A stretch of DNA of 64,000 nt from assembly GCF_009905605.1 (NCBI RefSeq), contig NZ_JAAAKZ010000013.1, positions 62,001 to 126,000 on the forward strand. The letters are read 5' to 3'. This stretch comes from Runella sp. CRIBMP. GTDB lineage: Bacteria > Bacteroidota > Bacteroidia > Cytophagales > Spirosomataceae. Shown here in pieces: positions 22,122-31,418 of this stretch. Made by a program: the position numbers and the translations under genes. The notes under the pieces are model-generated. The model was given only the letters and a program-made list of their open reading frames with translations, was not told the origin of the DNA and did not search any database. Position 1 is the first letter of the stretch. Each line of letters starts with the position of its first letter.

Positions 22122-25100
22122 ATGCAATTCTCCCACCTCCACTGCCATACCCAATACTCCCTACTCGACGGCGCGGCCGATATAAAAAAGCTGTTTAAGA
22201 AAGCCAAAGCCGACGAGATGCCCGCCATCGCCATCACCGACCACGGCAACATGTTCGGTGTGTTTGAATTCGTGGCCGAAGGCCACAAAACGGGCATCAA
22301 GCCCATTGTGGGCTGTGAGTTTTATTTGGTAGAAGACCGCCACAAAAAACAGTTTACCAAAGAACAAAAAGACGTACGCCGCCACCAACTGTTACTGGCC
22401 AAAAACGCCGAAGGCTACCGCAACTTAGCCAAACTTTGCTCGCTGGGGTTCATTGAAGGGATGTATGGCAAGTACCCGCGTATCGACAAAGAACTGTTGG
22501 TAAAATACCACAAAGGACTTATCGCCACTACCTGCTGCATTGGGGCAAGTGTGCCGCAGGCCATCATCAAAAAAGGCGAAGAAGCTGGGCGGCAAGAGTT
22601 TAAATGGTGGTTGGATTTATTCGGTGACGACTACTACGTAGAAATCCAACGTCACGGTATCCGCGACCAAATCATTGCCAACGACGCCCTGCTCAAATAC
22701 GCCAAAGAGTTCAACGTCAAGGTGATATGCTCCAACGACAGCCACTATGTAGAACAAGACGATGCCAACGCGCACGATATTTTACTTTGTGTAAACACTG
22801 GCGATAAACAAGCCACCCCCACCAATAAGGATTTTGACGACGCCAATCCGATGCCCAAAGGCACCCGCTTTGCGTTTTTCAACGATGAATTTTATTTCAA
22901 AACCAAATCCGAAATGCTCAAGACGTTCAGCGACCTACCCGAATCGCTGGACAATACGCAGGAAATCGTGGATAAAGTAGAATTGCTGAAGCTCAACCGC
23001 GACATTCTGCTGCCCAACTTCCCCATTCCAGAAGAATTTAAGAAGCACACTATTTCTCAAATGATTGACTTCAACGGCAAGATGAAAGAACTCACCGCCG
23101 ACGTCCTCAATCAATGGGAATACCTCAAACACTGGACCTTTGAGGGCGCACGGAAGAAATACAAAGAGATTACGCCCGAAATTGAAGAGCGCCTCAACTT
23201 TGAGTTGAACACCATCAAAAACATGGGTTTCCCTGGCTACTTCCTCATCGTGGCCGACTTCATTCAAGCGGGCCGCGATATGGGCGTGCTCATCGGCCCT
23301 GGGCGCGGCTCGGCGGCGGGGAGCGCGGTGGCCTACGCGATTGGTATCACCAACATCGACCCCATCAAGTACGACCTGCTGTTTGAGCGTTTTCTCAATC
23401 CCGACCGTATCTCCATGCCCGATATTGATACGGACTTCGACGACGAAGGCCGCCAAAAAGTGATTGATTATGTGGTGCAGAAATACGGCAAAAACCAAGT
23501 AGCGCAAATCATTACCTACGGCACTATGGCCGCCAAATCGTCCATCAAAGACGTGGCGCGAGTCATGGACCTGCCGCTGGCCGAAGCCAACGCCGTGGTG
23601 AAGTTGGTGCCTGATAAGCCTACTTACAACATGAACCTGAACAAGGTTTTTAACGTACCCATCGAAAAAATGGCGGAAATCATTTCGCCCGATGAGGTCG
23701 AAAACCTGAAAAAACTGCGCGAAATGCTCAAAGGCAACGACCTCACTGCCAGAGTATTGAAGGAGGCGCAGAAGCTGGAAGGCACCGTCCGCAACGTGGG
23801 TATCCACGCGGCAGGAATCATCATTGCGCCCGAGGATTTAACCAATCTGATTCCCGTTAGTACTTCAAAAGAATCAGAATTGCTCATTACGCAGTACGAA
23901 GGAAAAATCATTGAAGATGCGGGCGTTATCAAAATGGACTTTTTGGGGTTGCGCAACCTCACCATCATCAAAGAAGCCCTGCGCATGATTGAGGCCAACC
24001 ACGGCGTCAAAATCGACATCGACTATATTCCGCTCGACGACCCCAAAGTTTTTGAACTCTTCCAACGCGGTGATACCAACGCCGTGTTTCAGTTTGAATC
24101 CGACGGCATGAAAAAATACATGCGTGAGCTCAAACCCGACCGTTTTGAAGACCTCATCGCCATGAATGCCCTCTATCGTCCTGGGCCAATTGCCTATATT
24201 CCCAACTTTATTAATCGTAAACATGGACGTGAAAAAGTCGAATATGACCTTCCCGAAATGGAAGAATATTTGGCAGATACCTACGGGATTTGTGTGACAG
24301 GCGACACGCTCATCCATGATGCTAAAACGGGAGAAAGAGTACGTATTGATAGCCTTCAGCACCGCGTAGGCACGTTCTGGGTACAGGGAGTAAACGAAGC
24401 TTTGCAGCCCCAAAGCGCCCCTATTACCCATTGGGTTTGCAACGGTGAAAAAGAAGTGTTAGAACTTACATTAAAAAATGGTAGTCGCGTGAAACTGACC
24501 GCCGACCACCAAGTTTTGACCGAAACAGGCTGGCGTAAAGCAGGAGAATTAGGTGTAGGAAGTGCCATTGCTACACCTCGAAAATTGTTGGTTGAAAATG
24601 AAAAGGAATACGACCGTGACAAACTGCGCGTTTTGGCCTACATTTTGGCCGATGGCTCATTGAGTGGTTGTGGTGCTACTGCCGATTTTGTTTCAAAATC
24701 CCCCGAACTGATTCATGCTTATACCGATAGCCTCAACGCCTTTGAACGCGTGGAAGCCCGCACGTTACAACAAGTACGAGACGTAACCCGTGTGATGGTG
24801 GCAGGCACTGAGAAAACGCATTACCACGAAACAAATTCGTTGGTATTTCAACTACGTGAATGGGGATTAAAAACAATGAAAGGCGGTTGTCGTTCAGACG
24901 AAAAATTTGTACCTGAGTTTATTTTTGGTCTTTCGGAAGATACGATTGCTTTTTTCTTGGCATCACTTTGGGATTGCGATGGTCATATTGCCAATGATTT
25001 ATGCCATTTCAAAACCATTTCGCCACGATTGGCCAACGACGTCAAGACCTTACTTTTACGGTTAGGAATATATAGTATCACTTACGAATCTTATTATCAC

Positions 25101-27083
25101 AACAATCGCCGTGACCAAGAAATGACCGCCTACCAAGTAACGGTCTATAACTTGAAATCATTTGCTGAGTTCATTGCCCCACATTTGGTTGTGAAATCAA
25201 TGAAAGAGGTAAAATTAACGGGCCACGAAGTACACGATTCTATTTCAAGACAATTATTTTTAGATGAATTGGGGCAAGTTTGGAAAGGGTCAGGACGAGG
25301 GCTAATGGAAAAATACGGTTTTGACCGTCAGCATCTTTTACCCCATAAGATTGAAAAATGCCCTCGTATAAGTCGTAGTGCCGTTTTGCCGCTCACCAAA
25401 CAACTTCCGCTCGAACGCACTTCGCGGATTTTAAATGTTCGTTGGGAGGAAATTACTGAAATTCGGTCAATCGGTAAGGAAAAAGTGTATGATATTACGG
25501 TAGCAGGAATCCACAATTTTGTAGGTAACAACATCATTCTTCACAACTGTACCTATCAAGAACAGATCATGCTTCTCTCGCAAAAGCTAGCCAATTTTAC
25601 GAAAGGCGACGCCGACGTTTTGCGGAAAGCGATGGGGAAAAAGCAAATTGAGGTCTTGAACAAAATGAAGAGTAAGTTTGTGGAAGGCGGTAAGAAAAAT
25701 GGCCTCGACGAAAAGAAACTCGACAAAGTTTGGACCGACTGGGAAGCCTTTGCTTCGTATGCCTTTAACAAATCGCACTCAACTTGTTATGCGTTTGTGG
25801 CTTACCAAACAGCCTACCTCAAATCGCACTATCCGTCGGAATACATGGCGGCGGTGATGACGAGTTCGTTGGGCAACATCGAAAAACTCACTTTCTTTTT
25901 GGAGGAATGTAAGGCCATCGGCCTGTCGGTACTCGGCCCCGACGTCAACGAATCGGAGCGGCGATTTGGTGTCAACAAACGCGGCGAGATTCGCTTTGGG
26001 CTGGGCGGTATCAAAGGCACGGGCGACGCCGCCGTGGAAAGCATCATCGAAGAGCGCGACAAAAACGGCCCATACAAAGATATTTATGATTTTATGACCC
26101 GCGTCAACTTGCGGACTGTCAACAAAAAAACCATTGAATCGCTGGCCTACGCGGGGGCGTTTGATTTGTTTGAGGACTTCCACCGCGCTCAATATTTTAC
26201 GACGATAGACGGGGAGCAACAAAATCTCATCGAAAAGCTCATCCGCTACGCCAACGCCGTGCAAGCCGAAAAATCCAACGCCCAAGCCTCGCTGTTTGGA
26301 GGATTTGGCGGCGGTCGGTCCGACATTGCGCGACCCAAAGCGCCCAACGTGGAGCCATGGGGCGATATTGAGCGGTTGCGTTTTGAAAAAGACGTAGTAG
26401 GCTTCTACATCTCTGGCCATCCACTCGACATGTTCCGACTTGAACTCGACAACTTCTGTACCTGCACGCTCGACCGCGTCATGGCAACCTCCGAGCTCGT
26501 CGAAACGAGCGACGAGGAAAGCCCCGAAACCACTGGGCCCGTCAACGTCGAAATTGGCGGAAAGCCGCTGTTGTTTGGCAAAGACGTGACCGTGGCGGGC
26601 ATAGTGAGCAGTTTTCAGATTCGGACCACCAAAACGGGCAATCCGTTTTGTATTTTTAAACTGGAAGACTACGCCGGCTCGATGGAAATGGCGCTTTTCG
26701 GCGAAGATTTCGTAAAGTTTTCGGCCTACATCCAAACGGGTCACTTCCTATTTGTGAAAGGCAAAATCCAAAACCGCTGGAAGTCAGAAGACCAATACGA
26801 GTTTAAAATCAGCTCAATGCAGCTACTAAGCGAAGTGCGCGAAAAACTCACCAAAGAGATTCGTTTACAGTTGGATCTAGACCTGCTCGACGGGGTATTG
26901 GTGGCCAAGCTCAACGAAGCCGTGCAGGCGCATCCTGGCAACTGCTCGCTGTCGGTTTCGGTATTAGACAACCTCACCCGTACCGAGATAAAACTCCAAT
27001 CCCGACTCCACCGCGTAGCCCCCACCAACGCTTTTTTCAAACTGCTAGAAAGCATGGGCGGCGTGAAGTTTTCGGTGAATTGA
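22122..27083 (+). CDS. dnaE: DNA polymerase III alpha subunit interrupted by an intein
   Basis: 1653 residues as encoded; removing residues 724-1142 gives a 1234-residue DnaE, a normal length. The PHP domain opens MQFSHLHCHTQYSLLDGA with ITDHGN. The polymerase core has GPGRGSAAGS and the catalytic Asp residues in PDIDTDFDD (from residue 434). YAFNKSHSTCYAFVAYQTAY, where cyanobacterial split inteins sit, is intact. A C-terminal OB fold (VTVAGIVSSFQIRTTKTG) is present. This is the replicative polymerase. The extein junction reads TYGI-CTYQEQ, in place of the usual TYGI-xx-YQEQ. Confidence 0.96.
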   Translation: MQFSHLHCHTQYSLLDGAADIKKLFKKAKADEMPAIAITDHGNMFGVFEFVAEGHKTGIKPIVGCEFYLVEDRHKKQFTKEQKDVRRHQLLLAKNAEGYRNLAKLCSLGFIEGMYGKYPRIDKELLVKYHKGLIATTCCIGASVPQAIIKKGEEAGRQEFKWWLDLFGDDYYVEIQRHGIRDQIIANDALLKYAKEFNVKVICSNDSHYVEQDDANAHDILLCVNTGDKQATPTNKDFDDANPMPKGTRFAFFNDEFYFKTKSEMLKTFSDLPESLDNTQEIVDKVELLKLNRDILLPNFPIPEEFKKHTISQMIDFNGKMKELTADVLNQWEYLKHWTFEGARKKYKEITPEIEERLNFELNTIKNMGFPGYFLIVADFIQAGRDMGVLIGPGRGSAAGSAVAYAIGITNIDPIKYDLLFERFLNPDRISMPDIDTDFDDEGRQKVIDYVVQKYGKNQVAQIITYGTMAAKSSIKDVARVMDLPLAEANAVVKLVPDKPTYNMNLNKVFNVPIEKMAEIISPDEVENLKKLREMLKGNDLTARVLKEAQKLEGTVRNVGIHAAGIIIAPEDLTNLIPVSTSKESELLITQYEGKIIEDAGVIKMDFLGLRNLTIIKEALRMIEANHGVKIDIDYIPLDDPKVFELFQRGDTNAVFQFESDGMKKYMRELKPDRFEDLIAMNALYRPGPIAYIPNFINRKHGREKVEYDLPEMEEYLADTYGICVTGDTLIHDAKTGERVRIDSLQHRVGTFWVQGVNEALQPQSAPITHWVCNGEKEVLELTLKNGSRVKLTADHQVLTETGWRKAGELGVGSAIATPRKLLVENEKEYDRDKLRVLAYILADGSLSGCGATADFVSKSPELIHAYTDSLNAFERVEARTLQQVRDVTRVMVAGTEKTHYHETNSLVFQLREWGLKTMKGGCRSDEKFVPEFIFGLSEDTIAFFLASLWDCDGHIANDLCHFKTISPRLANDVKTLLLRLGIYSITYESYYHNNRRDQEMTAYQVTVYNLKSFAEFIAPHLVVKSMKEVKLTGHEVHDSISRQLFLDELGQVWKGSGRGLMEKYGFDRQHLLPHKIEKCPRISRSAVLPLTKQLPLERTSRILNVRWEEITEIRSIGKEKVYDITVAGIHNFVGNNIILHNCTYQEQIMLLSQKLANFTKGDADVLRKAMGKKQIEVLNKMKSKFVEGGKKNGLDEKKLDKVWTDWEAFASYAFNKSHSTCYAFVAYQTAYLKSHYPSEYMAAVMTSSLGNIEKLTFFLEECKAIGLSVLGPDVNESERRFGVNKRGEIRFGLGGIKGTGDAAVESIIEERDKNGPYKDIYDFMTRVNLRTVNKKTIESLAYAGAFDLFEDFHRAQYFTTIDGEQQNLIEKLIRYANAVQAEKSNAQASLFGGFGGGRSDIARPKAPNVEPWGDIERLRFEKDVVGFYISGHPLDMFRLELDNFCTCTLDRVMATSELVETSDEESPETTGPVNVEIGGKPLLFGKDVTVAGIVSSFQIRTTKTGNPFCIFKLEDYAGSMEMALFGEDFVKFSAYIQTGHFLFVKGKIQNRWKSEDQYEFKISSMQLLSEVREKLTKEIRLQLDLDLLDGVLVAKLNEAVQAHPGNCSLSVSVLDNLTRTEIKLQSRLHRVAPTNAFFKLLESMGGVKFSVN
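24291..25547 (+). mobile_element. DnaE intein with LAGLIDADG homing endonuclease
   Basis: In-frame insertion of 419 residues (724-1142 of the precursor). Block A starts at Cys724 (CVTGDTLIHDAKTG). Block B has TADH with Thr793 and His796. Two LAGLIDADG motifs follow: VLAYILADGSL (Asp844) and FLASLWDCDGH (Asp953). The C-terminal blocks are KVYDITVAGIHNFVGNN and a final His-Asn, followed by Cys1143 as the +1 residue. All residues needed for protein splicing are present. Base use inside is more AT-rich than in the flanking dnaE. The endonuclease motifs look intact, so the intein may still be mobile. Confidence 0.94.
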
Positions 27084-27100
27084 TGGACAAAATAAATTTG
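27069..27100 (+). promoter_or_regulatory. predicted promoter of the restriction-modification operon
   Basis: TTTT (27069-27072), 20 bases, then TAAATTTG (27093-27100), matching the TTTG-N19-21-TAnnTTTG pattern with one mismatch. It overlaps the end of dnaE and lies 25 bases before the methylase start. Confidence 0.45.
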
Positions 27101-27125
27101 AAACATATCTTTAAATAAAACTAGA

Positions 27126-28052
27126 ATGATAGAAAATAAAATAGCAAAACCATTTTTAAAGTGGGCAGGTGGAAAAACCCAGCTCATTTCTGATATTGAA
27201 AAAGCTTTACCAGCAGAAATAACTCAAACAAATTTCACTTACATCGAACCATTTGTTGGAAGCGGAGCAGTTTTATTTTGGATATTAAACAACTTCCCAA
27301 ATTTAAAAAAAGCCGTAATTAACGATATAAACGAAGATTTAATAAATACGTACAAAATCATTGCAAGCAGCCCCAAAGAGTTAATTTCAATTCTCAACAT
27401 TTTGCAAAATGAGTTTCATGGTTTGGAAGGAAATGAAGGTAACAAAAAACTTTATTATTACCAAAAAAGAGAACTATATAATTCAAGGAAAGAAGAACAA
27501 ATAGGACAAGCTGCTTTATTTATTTTTCTCAATCGAACTTGTTTTAATGGCTTGTATAGAGTTAACCGTAAAAATGAATATAATGTCCCAATGGGAGGCT
27601 ACAAAAATCCAACTATTTGCGACAAAGAAAATATTTTGGCAGTGAGTAATGCACTACAAAAAGTTGAAATTTTAAACGGAGATTTTGAGCAAACACTTAA
27701 TTACACAAGCAATAATTCATTATTTTACTTTGATCCACCCTACAAACCTTTGAGTGAAACTTCAAGTTTCAATTCCTATGCTAAAGACGACTTTAACGAC
27801 CATGAACAAATTAGGTTAAGAGATTTTTGTTCAAAACTTGACATTTTAAATCACAATTGGATTTTGAGTAATTCAGATGTTAAAGGCAAAAATATTAATG
27901 ATAACTTTTTTGATGATTTATATTCAGGCTTTAACATTAAGCGTGTAGAAGCAAGGCGAAATATTAATGCAAATCCTGAGAAAAGAGGTATATTAACAGA
28001 GTTATTAATTACAAATCAAGTAAAAAATCAGAATTATGTCAGAGCAATTTAA
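27126..28052 (+). CDS. dpnM: Dam-type adenine-N6 DNA methyltransferase of a DpnII/MboI-type system
   Basis: 308 residues. It opens with PFLKWAGGKTQLISDIEKALP, the family's SAM-binding motif. It has the FVGSGAVLFWIL block and the catalytic DPPY motif in YFDPPYKPLSE. These match the Dam/DpnM alpha-class enzymes that methylate adenine in GATC. The gene is much more AT-rich than dnaE before it. It is first of four tightly packed genes; the nuclease gene starts inside its last 17 bases. Its role is to protect host DNA from the paired nuclease. Confidence 0.93.
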   Translation: MIENKIAKPFLKWAGGKTQLISDIEKALPAEITQTNFTYIEPFVGSGAVLFWILNNFPNLKKAVINDINEDLINTYKIIASSPKELISILNILQNEFHGLEGNEGNKKLYYYQKRELYNSRKEEQIGQAALFIFLNRTCFNGLYRVNRKNEYNVPMGGYKNPTICDKENILAVSNALQKVEILNGDFEQTLNYTSNNSLFYFDPPYKPLSETSSFNSYAKDDFNDHEQIRLRDFCSKLDILNHNWILSNSDVKGKNINDNFFDDLYSGFNIKRVEARRNINANPEKRGILTELLITNQVKNQNYVRAI

Positions 28053-28875
28053 AATCTTCTTATCACAACTTTCAGAAACCAATGCAACGCTTGATTATTT
28101 TACTGATTTTAAGAAAATAAAGAGTAATATAAACAAAATTTCTATCAAGTTAAACCAATTAAATTACTTACTTGGAAAGGACAATTTAAAAGAAGCTGTT
28201 AACGAACTTTACGAAGAAAACCCGAAAGTTTTCGAGGTTTTAGACATTCTTATTGCTATTCGCAAGAACAAAAGTGCCAAAACCTTCAACAACAAAGGCA
28301 AAATTGTTTTGCTTGACACTTATTTTAATTCGCCCGAATTGATTTTGGAATACATCGAAGAGACAGGGTTAGCCAAAGTTTTTAGAAACAAAGACGTCAC
28401 TAATTTGGTAGATTATGTTTTTGGAATTGAAGTTGGTTTAGATACCAATGCAAGAAAAAACAGAGGTGGTGACAATATGTCAAAAGCCGTTTCACTCATT
28501 TTTGACAAAGCAGAAGTTTTCTATAAAAAGGAAGTAAACAATACTATATTTCCTGAAATTATCAGTTTAGGAGCCGATGTTAAACGATTTGACTTTGTCA
28601 TAAAAACAAAAAAGAAAACTTATTTGATTGAAACCAATTATTACAATAGCGGAGGTTCAAAACTGAATGAAACAGCAAGAGCATATTCAGATGTTTCCCC
28701 AAAAATTAATAAATATGACAATTACGAATTTGTTTGGATAACAGACGGACAAGGTTGGTTCTCTGCAAAGAACAAATTGGAGGAAGCGTATAACATTATA
28801 CCTAGTTTATACAACCTAATAACGCTTGAAAATTTTATAAAAAAAATTCATACAGAAGAAATAGTTAAGTTTTAA
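28036..28875 (+). CDS. dpnII: DpnII/MboI-type restriction endonuclease (GATC)
   Basis: 279 residues. The stretch VKRFDFVIKTKKKTYLIETNYYNSGGSKLNETARAY is the strongly conserved core of DpnII, MboI and LlaDCHI nucleases; its Asp and the ETN segment belong to the PD-(D/E)xK-like active site. It should cut unmethylated GATC in incoming DNA. Its start codon lies within dpnM and its stop codon directly precedes dpnA, so the three genes are translationally linked. Confidence 0.93.
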   Translation: MSEQFKIFLSQLSETNATLDYFTDFKKIKSNINKISIKLNQLNYLLGKDNLKEAVNELYEENPKVFEVLDILIAIRKNKSAKTFNNKGKIVLLDTYFNSPELILEYIEETGLAKVFRNKDVTNLVDYVFGIEVGLDTNARKNRGGDNMSKAVSLIFDKAEVFYKKEVNNTIFPEIISLGADVKRFDFVIKTKKKTYLIETNYYNSGGSKLNETARAYSDVSPKINKYDNYEFVWITDGQGWFSAKNKLEEAYNIIPSLYNLITLENFIKKIHTEEIVKF

Positions 28876-29754
28876 ATGATAAGTCCCTATTTCAAACTTG
28901 ATAAAAAAAACTTCTATCTTCTTCACGGAGATACAAGAGAACTTTTGCCTCAATTTGAGCACAAATTTGATATGATTTTTGCCGATCCTCCCTATTTCCT
29001 ATCAAATAACGGGCTTTCAATTCAAAATGGACAAATTGTAAGCGTAAACAAAGGAAAATGGGATAAATCTGAAGGTTTTGAATTTGTAAATAATTTCAAT
29101 CGACGATGGTTATCTCTAGTTCGTAACAAAATGAAAGACGATGCCACAATTTGGATAAGCGGAACCATTCACAATATTTTTTCTATAGGTCAAATTCTGG
29201 CAGAACTAGATTTTAAAATATTGAATATTATTACTTGGGAAAAACCAAATCCACCACCAAACTTTTCTTGTAGATATTTTACATATTCAACTGAACAAAT
29301 CATTTGGGCAAGAAAAAGTAAAAAAACACCACATTTCTTTAATTATGAATTAATGAAGCAATTAAACGGTGATAAACAAATGAAAGATGTTTGGAAATTG
29401 CCTGCCATTGCTCCCTGGGAAAAATCTTGTGGTAAACACCCAACTCAAAAACCGCTTTCAGTTTTAACAAGGCTGATTCTTGCTTCAACAAAACCAAATG
29501 CATGGATACTTGATCCTTTTACAGGAAGTAGTACGACTGGAATAGCCGCAAACCTTGTAAACAGAAGATTTTTAGGAATTGATCAAGAAAAAGAGTTTTT
29601 GGAAATCAGTAAAATGAGAAGGTTAGAAATTGAAAACAATAAAATTGCAACTTCATACAGACAAAAAATAGGTGGATTTAATGAGAGAAAACATCTTGAA
29701 TACCTCCTACTTGAAGAGCCAATGATTGAATATAAAAATGAACTAATACTATAA
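28876..29754 (+). CDS. dpnA: second adenine-N6 methyltransferase of the DpnII-type system (DpnA-like)
   Basis: 292 residues. The catalytic DPPY motif lies near the N-terminus (MIFADPPYFLSNNG) and the SAM motif near the C-terminus (ILDPFTGSSTTGIAANL), the beta-class order. HPTQKPLSVLTRLI is typical. DpnA-like enzymes methylate GATC and can act on single-stranded DNA, useful during DNA uptake in Streptococcus. Two methylases of different class beside one DpnII-type nuclease is the classical DpnII gene set. The start codon abuts the dpnII stop. Confidence 0.92.
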   Translation: MISPYFKLDKKNFYLLHGDTRELLPQFEHKFDMIFADPPYFLSNNGLSIQNGQIVSVNKGKWDKSEGFEFVNNFNRRWLSLVRNKMKDDATIWISGTIHNIFSIGQILAELDFKILNIITWEKPNPPPNFSCRYFTYSTEQIIWARKSKKTPHFFNYELMKQLNGDKQMKDVWKLPAIAPWEKSCGKHPTQKPLSVLTRLILASTKPNAWILDPFTGSSTTGIAANLVNRRFLGIDQEKEFLEISKMRRLEIENNKIATSYRQKIGGFNERKHLEYLLLEEPMIEYKNELIL

Positions 29755-30594
29755 ATGGGGAATAACGAAACTTGTATACACGGAGGTGTTTCGCCAATAA
29801 GTCTTTTAGTAGATCTACACCATAGCCAAGCAGGCAGTGGTAGACACCGTTGTCCGACTTGTGCATATGAACAAGGTTTTTATTTAGGTAGCAGTGGAAG
29901 TTGGAATTCCTATAAAGAGTTTTCTAAGACCTTAATAGACCCTGAACTTTGTCAATTCGGTTCAGTTGCGCCTACCCATATCTTATCCAATTTAGGTGAA
30001 AACCAAGGCGGGTCTGGCAGGCATAAATGTACCAACTGTGCATTTAAACAAGGATTTGAAGCAGGTGTCTTAAAAAATAAAATTAATGAAATTAGTATTG
30101 AAACTGTTCCTATTCCAACATTTAGGAATAGTGGGGGAAAGATACCTAATACACCTTTAAGTTTTGATTTTATTGAAAAGGAAATTAAAAATAAACACTT
30201 AGGCTTATTGGGAGAACTATTTATTCTTAAAAGTGAAATTGATTTTTTAAAATCTAAAGGTAAAGACGATTTAGCCGACAAAGTTAAGCACGTTTCTGTT
30301 GAAATTGGTGATAGTTTAGGTTATGACATTCTATCTTATGACCTTTTGGGAAATGAAAAGAAGATTGAAGTAAAAACCACTAGAAGCGACATTGCAAGAC
30401 CTTTTTATTTAACGAAAAATGAAATAGACGTTTCTTCTAAAAACCCCAATAGCTACTACCTTTATAGACTTTTTGATTTTGACTCAAATTTACATAAAGG
30501 GAAGTGCTATATAATTTCTGGCGATTTAACCAATTTATTGATTTTAGATGCTTTAGTTTTTATTGCATATCCAAAGCCAAATGAAAGCAAATAA
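29755..30594 (+). CDS. protein with duplicated C-x23-HxCxxC motif and DUF3883/NOV_C nuclease-like domain
   Basis: 279 residues; its ATG directly follows the dpnA stop, so it is the fourth gene of the restriction operon. The first 105 residues hold two copies of one motif with identical spacing: Cys7-x23-His31-x-Cys33-x2-Cys36 and Cys66-x23-His90-x-Cys92-x2-Cys95. Each ends GSGRHxCxxCAxxQGF and looks like a zinc site. From about residue 140 there is a DUF3883/NOV_C-like domain: GLLGELFILKSE, GDSLGYDILSYD, then IEVKTT, giving the D and ExK of a PD-(D/E)xK fold. I infer a DNA-binding or nuclease accessory to the GATC system. It is not part of the classical DpnII set. Function is unproven. Confidence 0.75.
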   Translation: MGNNETCIHGGVSPISLLVDLHHSQAGSGRHRCPTCAYEQGFYLGSSGSWNSYKEFSKTLIDPELCQFGSVAPTHILSNLGENQGGSGRHKCTNCAFKQGFEAGVLKNKINEISIETVPIPTFRNSGGKIPNTPLSFDFIEKEIKNKHLGLLGELFILKSEIDFLKSKGKDDLADKVKHVSVEIGDSLGYDILSYDLLGNEKKIEVKTTRSDIARPFYLTKNEIDVSSKNPNSYYLYRLFDFDSNLHKGKCYIISGDLTNLLILDALVFIAYPKPNESK

Positions 30595-30818
30595 TGTTAA
30601 CGTTTAACAGTGGTACCTCTTAACAACCAGTGACAGAAAAAGCAAAGGCGCCTCATCAGTCTAATAATATGATGGTCGAAGTGCTTTATAGATACATTTG
30701 TACTAAAAAAATCATCAGGTATTCTAGTGTGATTTATACATCGCCAATTCCTAACCATCAATAGCCATTTTAACAAATATTACACCAATAATAAAATTCT
30801 CCCAAGATTGATCGAACA
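30595..30818. other. AT-rich gap after the restriction operon
   Basis: 224 bases without a gene. One TAnnTTTG-like box (TACATTTG, 30693-30700) lies 118 bases before the HD-domain gene but lacks a minus-33 partner. No terminator hairpin is obvious. Confidence 0.4.
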
Positions 30819-31418
30819 ATGCAGACTGACAATCTATTAAAACAGGTAAGCTTCATTAAAGAGATAGACAAGTTGAAATACATTCAGCGTAAAACTAAAT
30901 TATTTAACAGCGATAGGCACGAAAATGACGCTGAACACAGTTGGCATTTAGCAATGATGGCAATTGTGCTGGCCGAACATTCAGACAAACCCATTGACGT
31001 TCTGAAAGTTGTAAAAATGGTTTTAATTCATGACATCGTAGAAATTGATGCTGGCGACACTTTTATTTATGACGCTCAAAAAAACCATACAAATACCGAC
31101 CAAGAACTTATTGCTGCAAACCGAATATTTGGACTTTTACCCGCAGAACAAGCAGAAGAATTTATTGACATCTGGAAAGAATTTGAAGAAGGTGTGACCG
31201 ACGAAGCAAAATTTGCCAAAGCAATGGACCGATTTGAACCATTGCTACAAAATACCTCAAATAATGGCGGTACTTGGACCGAATTTAATGTTCCTTATCA
31301 AAAAGTTTACGATAAGAAAAAAGCAATTAAAAACGGTTCAGCATCCATTTGGAGCTATGCAGAGAACTTAATCAACGAAAGTGTGGAAAAAGGAATCCTC
31401 ATAAAAAAGGTTGACTGA
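30819..31418 (+). CDS. HD-domain hydrolase (HDDC2/YfbR-like)
   Basis: 199 residues. The metal-binding HD pattern is complete: RHENDAEHSWHLAMMA (first His), VLIHDIVEIDAGDTF (His-Asp plus following Glu and Asp) and a later Asp in AMDRFEPLL. The closest family style is the HDDC2/YfbR 5'-deoxynucleotidase group, which removes phosphate from deoxynucleoside monophosphates. Whether that activity holds here is inference. It is transcribed in the same direction as the restriction operon and the arr gene, in an accessory block. Confidence 0.85.
   Translation: MQTDNLLKQVSFIKEIDKLKYIQRKTKLFNSDRHENDAEHSWHLAMMAIVLAEHSDKPIDVLKVVKMVLIHDIVEIDAGDTFIYDAQKNHTNTDQELIAANRIFGLLPAEQAEEFIDIWKEFEEGVTDEAKFAKAMDRFEPLLQNTSNNGGTWTEFNVPYQKVYDKKKAIKNGSASIWSYAENLINESVEKGILIKKVD

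What the first reader, a model, noticed from the sequence alone, without database searches (positions are those of the whole stretch)
29755..30594. Fourth gene of a DpnII-type operon joins duplicated zinc-like motifs to a DUF3883 nuclease-like domain
Seen: the ATG abuts the dpnA stop, so it is translated with the GATC system. Two copies of C-x23-H-x-C-x2-C have identical spacing and are followed by a D...ExK pattern. Known: classical DpnII loci have two methylases and one nuclease, not this gene. Inference: it may be a DNA-reading nuclease, a guard against methylation-evading phage, or a stabiliser of the system. An undescribed accessory of GATC restriction is the strongest candidate here for a new system component.
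Basis: partly seen in the sequence, partly recalled or inferred. Interest (0 to 1): 0.75.

Follow-up and report, generated by a model that had tools for sequence, protein, structure and literature searches.

The report
Zinc-headed nuclease in GATC restriction operon
A bacterial DNA-cutting defence operon that protects GATC sites carries a fourth, abutting gene joining a previously unclassified zinc-type domain to a nuclease-type domain, and it travels with the operon's protective methylases even when the cutting enzyme is swapped, which suggests an optional second line of defence.

Summary
Gene 29755-30594 (279 aa) starts directly after the dpnA stop, has two C-x23-H-x-C-x2-C copies, and ends in NOV_C/DUF3883 (PF13020) with the E154, D191, E205, K207 pattern kept across the family. 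All 6 close relatives found elsewhere also lie in Dam-type MTase + nuclease + DpnA-type MTase operons, although the nuclease differs (two DpnII subtypes, or Sau3AI/MutH type). Identity of the gene ranks with the methylases (0.87, 0.84), not the nuclease (-0.18). A same-genus genome has an empty site, so the four genes behave as one insert. The head is an unclassified double repeat with a confident AlphaFold model (pLDDT 89) and no fold match in PDB or BFVD. It also exists alone: inside three GATC operons, and on phages and plasmids mostly without GATC genes nearby. It is optional: of 11 close-methylase loci sampled, one has this gene and one the head alone. NOV_C elsewhere is joined to modification-reading heads (MrcB_N, DUF3427), so I favour a reader-nuclease that attacks DNA escaping the GATC enzyme (about 0.4). 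Substrate and activity are untested..

The parts
27126..28052 (+). M1: Dam/DpnM-type D12-class adenine MTase (GATC inferred from family)
   Evidence: PF02086 6.9e-66; TIGR00571 dam 9.5e-88
28036..28875 (+). R: DpnII-type endonuclease, overlaps M1 by 17 bases
   Evidence: PF04556 8.2e-95
28876..29754 (+). M2: DpnA-type N6_N4 MTase
   Evidence: PF01555 2.9e-57
29755..30594 (+). fourth gene, Zn-Zn head fused to NOV_C, 279 aa
29773..29889 (+). head repeat 1 (residues 7-45), C7/H31/C33/C36
   Evidence: model pLDDT 89
29950..30069 (+). head repeat 2 (residues 66-105), C66/H90/C92/C95; cysteine pair seen only in the fused proteins here
30214..30489 (+). NOV_C (DUF3883) nuclease-type domain (residues 154-245), E154, D191, E205, K207
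   Evidence: PF13020 8.1e-17; conservation
27091..30766 (.). 3676-bp block (one-base uncertainty at the joint) present here and absent in a same-genus genome (G404, L209), holding the four genes
   Evidence: blastn of L209 against the window: stretches matching 26501-27090 and 30767-31418 are adjacent there

Best explanation
The gene most likely encodes an accessory reader-nuclease. The Zn-Zn head binds DNA, or a phage- or damage-specific feature of it, and delivers the PD-(D/E)xK-type NOV_C domain to cut it, while tolerating the host's methylated GATC. It would act as a second, type-IV-like layer beside the GATC enzyme, hitting DNA that the primary nuclease cannot cut (for example phage DNA with modified bases or blocked GATC sites). 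Shown by sequence: domain make-up, conserved catalytic-type residues, abutting genes, linkage to GATC-type operons, divergence in step with the methylases, optional presence. Inferred: nuclease activity, DNA binding by the head, metal binding, substrate, phage defence.
For: NOV_C with E154/E205/K207 kept in 18 of 18 and D191 in 17 of 18 profile-found proteins, and in 6 of 6 fused ones (all 44 rows). An earlier study calls DUF3883 a novel REase domain (PMC3710099, one table passage). Of 10 viral-contig NOV_C proteins scanned (10 of 21 found), 2 carry MrcB_N and 3 DUF3427, one a sub-threshold Pua-like match, 4 no named head; McrB's N-terminal DUF3578 binds an extrahelical modified base, and DUF3427 is the proposed substrate reader of SauUSI (PMC3874153, passages; that MrcB_N is DUF3578 is recalled). 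The window protein matches PADLOC PDC-S36 (3.7e-44) and PD-T4-1 (4.3e-15); systems selected against T4 generally protected against T2 and T6 (PMC9519451, section 7). Linkage to GATC-type operons 6 of 6. The gene is kept while the nuclease changes: close DpnII in L005, divergent DpnII in L002-L004 and L006, Sau3AI/MutH type in L007. Identity over 21 locus pairs ranks with M1 (0.87) and M2 (0.84), not R (-0.18); without L007, 15 pairs, 0.91, 0.89 and 0.11. BREX with the type IV enzyme BrxU is a published two-layer precedent (PMC8565348, abstract).
Against: No biochemistry. The head is not GATC-specific as a family: only 1 of 92 phage/plasmid/viral-contig loci with it clearly holds GATC-system relatives (3 more have short 73-78 aa MTase matches); many of the 92 are near-duplicates and some flanks are short. 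The head has no credible relative among Pfam families, solved sequences or folds. The gene is optional: 1 of 11 close-M2 loci, and its frame is broken in L007 beside M1, R and M2 ORFs, although that is a MAG and may be an assembly error. The pairs are not independent. The linkage sample comes from patterns drawn from the window protein, so it favours close relatives. The study of PD-T4-1 says that the five one-protein DNases it discusses do not resemble type IV systems (PMC9519451, passage; I did not see whether PD-T4-1 is one of them). Shared history with the methylases could follow from adjacency alone.
Confidence: 0.4

Rival explanations
1. It is an independent one-gene anti-phage nuclease of the PDC-S36/PD-T4-1 kind that settled in the operon as cargo, sharing its promoter but not its biology.
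For: The place between R and M2, or after M2, holds many different genes in related operons: DGQHR/DndB-like, DUF7004, DUF6997, small proteins that look like membrane proteins, a 593-aa protein that looks like an ATPase (the last two are my reading). NOV_C proteins with other N-terminal halves occur with no GATC-type genes in the stretches fetched (L063-L068). The gene is optional.
Against: All 7 fused genes known here are in GATC-type operons, and in 395 phylum genomes the 18 other genomes with a match have only the part from residue 107 on. The head turned up in GATC operons in a second, stand-alone form too (L046, L047, L069).
Confidence: 0.25
2. It is a second GATC endonuclease of type II: the head reads unmethylated (perhaps single-stranded or hemimethylated) GATC, and M1/M2 protect the host.
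For: Divergence in step with the methylases rather than with R. DUF3883 has been placed presumptively among type II REases in archaea (PMC10609329, passage), and two related loci hold what I read as an m5C MTase (L063, L064; not scanned).
Against: In 7 of 7 operons another nuclease of a GATC-cutting family is already present. The head's relatives mostly have no GATC-type genes nearby.
Confidence: 0.2
3. It is a stabiliser or regulator: the Zn-Zn head controls expression or couples survival to methylation, and NOV_C kills when methylation fails.
For: Small head-only versions sit inside GATC operons (L046, L047, L069). Small helix-turn-helix genes (my reading of their sequence) appear beside related operons, so control genes are common there.
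Against: No direct evidence; the kept catalytic-type residues argue against a pure regulator. 9 of 11 close loci lack head and NOV_C.
Confidence: 0.1

Closest known systems
PADLOC PDC-S36 (candidate defence family)
   Same: C-terminal half matches over residues 119-272 at 3.7e-44; model of 280 positions, so similar length.
   Different: The N-terminal half does not match (profile positions 124-278 only). NOV_C proteins of 270-290 aa with another N-terminal half and no GATC-type genes in the stretch fetched are seen in L063-L068; I did not scan those against PADLOC.
PD-T4-1 (experimentally selected anti-T4 system)
   Same: NOV_C part, E 4.3e-15.
   Different: Other N-terminal part (only profile positions 238-348 of 383 match); its operon content was not checked here.
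MrcB_N-NOV_C and DUF3427-NOV_C proteins (type-IV-like architecture)
   Same: Head + NOV_C plan.
   Different: Their heads belong to known or proposed modified-DNA readers; this head matches none of those families.
DpnII system of Streptococcus pneumoniae (dpnM, dpnA, dpnB)
   Same: Two GATC-type MTases and a DpnII nuclease.
   Different: The passages seen name three genes (PMC3573125); order here is M1-R-M2-gene 4.
phrog_3941 / stand-alone Zn-Zn proteins of phages and plasmids
   Same: Same double repeat (phrog_3941, 2.5e-15); repeat 1 with RHxCxxC in 14 of 15 and 50 of 50 unique frames from the two kinds of source.
   Different: About 86-90 aa, no nuclease, no cysteine pair in repeat 2 (0 of 15, 0 of 50).

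Membership tests
NOV_C / DUF3883 (PF13020) | match above the curated cut-off | tested here: met
   61.5 bits against 22.1
NOV_C / DUF3883 (PF13020) | family catalytic-type residues E...D...ExK | tested here: met
   E154, D191, E205, K207 present; kept in 17-18 of 18 profile-found proteins
NOV_C / DUF3883 (PF13020) | PD-(D/E)xK fold | tested here: inconclusive
   full-length model too poor (pLDDT 33); no PDB relative by profile
PDC-S36 | match over the whole 280-position model | tested here: not met
   best stretch covers profile positions 124-278 only
Type IV (modification-dependent) restriction enzyme | known modified-base reading head | tested here: not met
   no Pfam family above cut-off in the head, no fold match
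Type IV (modification-dependent) restriction enzyme | cuts modified but not unmodified DNA | not testable with these tools
   needs purified protein
Type IV (modification-dependent) restriction enzyme | works without a cognate methylase | tested here: inconclusive
   with two MTases in 7 of 7 loci, but they may serve only the GATC nuclease
DpnII-type GATC restriction-modification system | Dam-type MTase, DpnA-type MTase and DpnII nuclease adjacent | tested here: met
DpnII-type GATC restriction-modification system | gene 4 is a regular component | tested here: not met
   1 of 11 close-M2 loci, 0 of 9 distant ones
phrog_3941 | profile match of the head | tested here: met
   2.5e-15, two stretches

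The most novel reading that the evidence does not exclude
GATC restriction operons of this clade are a modular immune platform: the two methylases are a fixed core, while the GATC nuclease and one or more accessory effectors are exchanged. Gene 4 is an effector in which a new fold (a double zinc-type Q-x-RH domain also used alone by phages and plasmids) reads a DNA state linked to GATC methylation and triggers a NOV_C nuclease.
Probability: 0.25. Interest if true: 0.75.

Novelty: new variant of a known kind. Interest (0 to 1): 0.5.

Why it matters
NOV_C proteins turned up in many of the genomes and plasmids searched, and some carry known or proposed DNA-modification readers as heads. This head is small, models confidently, has no fold match in the two libraries searched, and occurs both fused to a nuclease and alone on phages and plasmids, so it may lie on both sides of the phage-host conflict. 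Divergence in step with the methylases while the cutting enzyme is replaced makes a testable case that a type II system recruits a second layer keyed to its own mark.

Tried and rejected
Full-length AlphaFold from 6 sequences failed (mean pLDDT 33) and was not used. A mixed alignment of heads and NOV_C domains placed the second head repeat of the stand-alone proteins in the NOV_C region and was dropped; the head alone was folded instead. The pdb_via fold library was not available. Sequence searches against solved structures gave nothing credible for the whole protein, NOV_C or the head. Viral-contig scans with alignment A2 (head of the fused proteins), with single DpnII, with single M2 and with alignment A1 (whole fused proteins) found no relatives; scans with alignments A3, A5 and A4 did. 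The phrog_3941 hit in G252 (9.3e-4, stop inside) had no restriction genes around it that I could see and no head by six-frame scan (L048), so I treat it as spurious. My first count of stand-alone heads used a mechanical ORF list that missed 14 of 101 loci; a six-frame repeat found the head in 94 of the 95 non-fused loci of that set and confirmed the census negatives. The first rank correlation set the four shortest R alignments (all with L007, under 100 residues) to 15% identity; leaving out L007, or the near-duplicate L003, or both, does not change the picture (which uses the rounded identities). Paper searches: DUF3883 with defense or restriction, DpnII operon with accessory, type IV/DUF3427, PD-T4-1, NOV_C (swamped by cholera papers), PDC-S36 (no occurrence in the 8 papers listed), dpnA/dpnM. 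In the listings and passages seen I found no description of this fusion or head; the library lacks most subscription papers, so this is weak evidence of absence. The idea that the histidine is simply a zinc ligand was weakened. The idea that the gene is tied to DpnII itself was rejected because of L007.

Full report
WHAT IS THERE. The window holds four abutting or overlapping genes on the + strand between dnaE and an HD-domain gene: a Dam-type MTase (M1), a DpnII endonuclease (R), a DpnA-type MTase (M2) and the gene in question. M1 and R overlap by 17 bases; R ends at 28875 and M2 starts at 28876; M2 ends at 29754 and the fourth gene starts at 29755. The four genes have G+C 0.30-0.33 against 0.459 for the window. 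A same-genus genome (G404, locus L209) has the HD gene 58 bases after the dnaE stop; alignment puts the difference at window 27091-30766, so the four genes are one clean presence/absence block.

THE PROTEIN. Residues 1-112 are two copies of a unit with C-x23-H-x-C-x2-C. Two such motifs are not expected by chance (0 of 200,000 shuffles). Residues 154-245 match NOV_C/DUF3883. Among NOV_C proteins found by profile and not by motif, E154, E205 and K207 are kept in 18 of 18 and D191 in 17 of 18; the 6 fused proteins keep all four; the 21 viral-contig ones keep all four too, but were retrieved by patterns that include three of them. This is the pattern expected of a working PD-(D/E)xK-type nuclease; an earlier survey called DUF3883 a novel REase domain (PMC3710099, one passage seen). 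The fold itself was not confirmed here.

RELATIVES OF THE WHOLE PROTEIN. A scan of the genome-contig collection (84,980 species by its description) with six peptide patterns from the window protein gave 46 stretches, of which 6 encode relatives at 59-78% identity, in records named as Chitinophaga pinensis MAGs (2), Bacteroidota, Cytophagaceae, Polaribacter and Porphyromonadaceae. All 6 lie in operons with M1 and M2 relatives and a nuclease. The nuclease is the close DpnII in L005 (81%), a divergent DpnII in L002, L003, L004 and L006 (35-39%), and a Sau3AI/MutH-type protein in L007. In L002-L005 the gene follows M2 directly, abutting or overlapping by one base; in L006 and L007 it lies between R and M2. 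In L007 its frame is broken into two ORFs. Over the 21 pairs of the 7 loci, identity of the fourth gene (from about residue 72) ranks with M1 (0.87) and M2 (0.84) but not with R (-0.18). Four R pairs with L007 were set to a floor of 15% because their alignments were too short; without L007 the values are 0.91, 0.89 and 0.11 over 15 pairs. Pairs are not independent, so P values mean little.

HOW COMMON. Whole-protein profile: 19 of 395 phylum genomes match, but all 18 except the window match only from residue 107 on. Head profile: the window and G477 among 99 relatives; only the window among 291 genomes of the order. phrog_3941: the window, G002 and a weak hit in G252 among 395. DpnII family: 10 of 395 genomes have a match, 3 of them over the full length (the window, G002, G333); G333 has no head or NOV_C in the stretches fetched. 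M2 profile in the class: 20 places in 19 of 395 genomes. Of 11 places with M2 at 74% or more (the window and G002 included; two have M2 incomplete, one of these at a contig end, and some flanks are short), the window has the fused gene, G002 the head alone and 9 neither; of the 9 more distant places none has either. In viral contigs the 4 closest M2 loci include one with the head alone (L237, the same record as L069); none of the other 78 loci has head or NOV_C in the stretch fetched. A six-frame repeat over 106 loci (L060-L068, L169-L186, L221-L299) found the head only in L237, and NOV_C only in L063-L068, which had been fetched for it. So it is an optional accessory of one clade, not a standard DpnII component.

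OTHER CARGO. Related operons carry exchangeable extras: DGQHR/DndB-like proteins (L003, L004, L006, L069 by family scan; L173 by weak BLAST), DUF7004 (L002), DUF6997 (L069), small proteins that look like membrane proteins, and a 593-aa protein that reads like an ATPase (L171) (the last two kinds are my reading). Gene 4 is one item of this set.

THE HEAD ALONE. Stand-alone 86-90 aa versions sit between R and M2 in G477 and G002 (L046, L047), and between R and M2 with other cargo in L069. Beyond that the head is spread over phages and plasmids; the 12 annotated neighbourhoods showed me no common partner. Only 1 of 92 such loci clearly holds GATC-system relatives and 3 more have short MTase matches; many of the 92 are near-duplicates, some flanks are short, and only relatives of the genes studied here were looked for. 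Repeat 1 keeps RHxCxxC in 14 of 15 unique frames from tblastn or profile searches and in 50 of 50 from the pattern scan; repeat 2 keeps Q-x-RH in 14 of 15 and 50 of 50 but has no cysteine pair in any (one search gave 49 of 49 by ORF list). The scan patterns favour this form, so the 15 are the fairer sample. The 6 aligned fused proteins keep both sites. So Q-x-RH is the deepest shared feature and may be the working surface, with zinc as scaffold; this is inference. AlphaFold2 on residues 1-111 with 38 sequences gave pLDDT 89 and pTM 0.85, with each CxxC pair at the start of a helix. Foldseek found nothing at E 0.001 or better in PDB (best 2.7) or BFVD (best 0.58). Foldseek can be weak on small metal-stabilised domains (recalled), so a new fold is possible, not shown.

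WHAT NOV_C DOES ELSEWHERE. Of 21 viral-contig NOV_C loci I scanned 10: MrcB_N in 2, DUF3427 in 3, a sub-threshold Pua-like match in 1, no named head in 4. McrB's N-terminal DUF3578 binds an extrahelical modified base, and DUF3427 is the proposed reader of SauUSI (PMC3874153, passages). The window protein also matches PADLOC PD-T4-1; the paper on that screen reports that its anti-T4 systems generally also protect against T2 and T6 (PMC9519451, section 7), though it says that the five one-protein DNases it discusses do not resemble type IV systems. Winged-helix readers of methylated GATC fused to nucleases are a precedent for reading this mark (PMC11037411, passages), but a cutter of fully methylated GATC could not live with a Dam-type MTase.

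READING. The picture I favour is a reader-nuclease with a new head, recruited by GATC operons as a second layer and used together with whichever GATC nuclease is present. Divergence in step with the methylases suggests, but does not prove, a link to methylation state; simple adjacency would give the same pattern, although R is as close by and does not show it. The main rivals are an independent passenger and a second GATC endonuclease.

LIMITS. No activity, metal or DNA binding was or could be tested. The linkage sample is small and favours close relatives. GATC specificity of M1, R and M2 is taken from family membership. That the host is a member of the Bacteroidota is inferred from the named records that hold close relatives.

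Noticed in passing
window 22122-27083: dnaE ORF of 1653 aa holds an intein-like insertion (my reading); in 13 genomes of the genus the open frame is 1236-1248 aa in eight, 1640-1673 aa in four (the window's included) and 927 aa in one.
   Followed up: partly
window 27084-30818 and L211:2584-3239: The place after dnaE looks like an insertion hot spot: empty in G404, and in G396 filled by a different insert of about 600 bp with small genes that ends in a second 65-bp copy of the dnaE 3' end.
   Followed up: partly
L004:3500-5126, L006:4297-6004, L069:3642-5259: A small membrane-type protein (my reading) followed by a DGQHR/DndB-like protein recurs as a pair inside GATC operons.
   Followed up: no
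L169:8117-8638 and L172:8592-9098: A 168-173 aa protein with a KGG-x2-T-x-TGL-x-FE-like start lies beside close M2 relatives, in L169 in the place of R; it may be a third type of GATC nuclease.
   Followed up: no
L069 / L237 (IMGVR_UViG_3300038674_000546): A contig in the viral collection carries a seven-gene GATC operon with DUF6997, head-only protein, small protein and DGQHR protein between R and M2.
   Followed up: partly
L181, L183, L185; L225, L229, L230: DUF6997 relatives lie beside or near more distant DpnA-type MTases, and DUF7004 relatives lie near others; both may be linked accessories of such systems.
   Followed up: no
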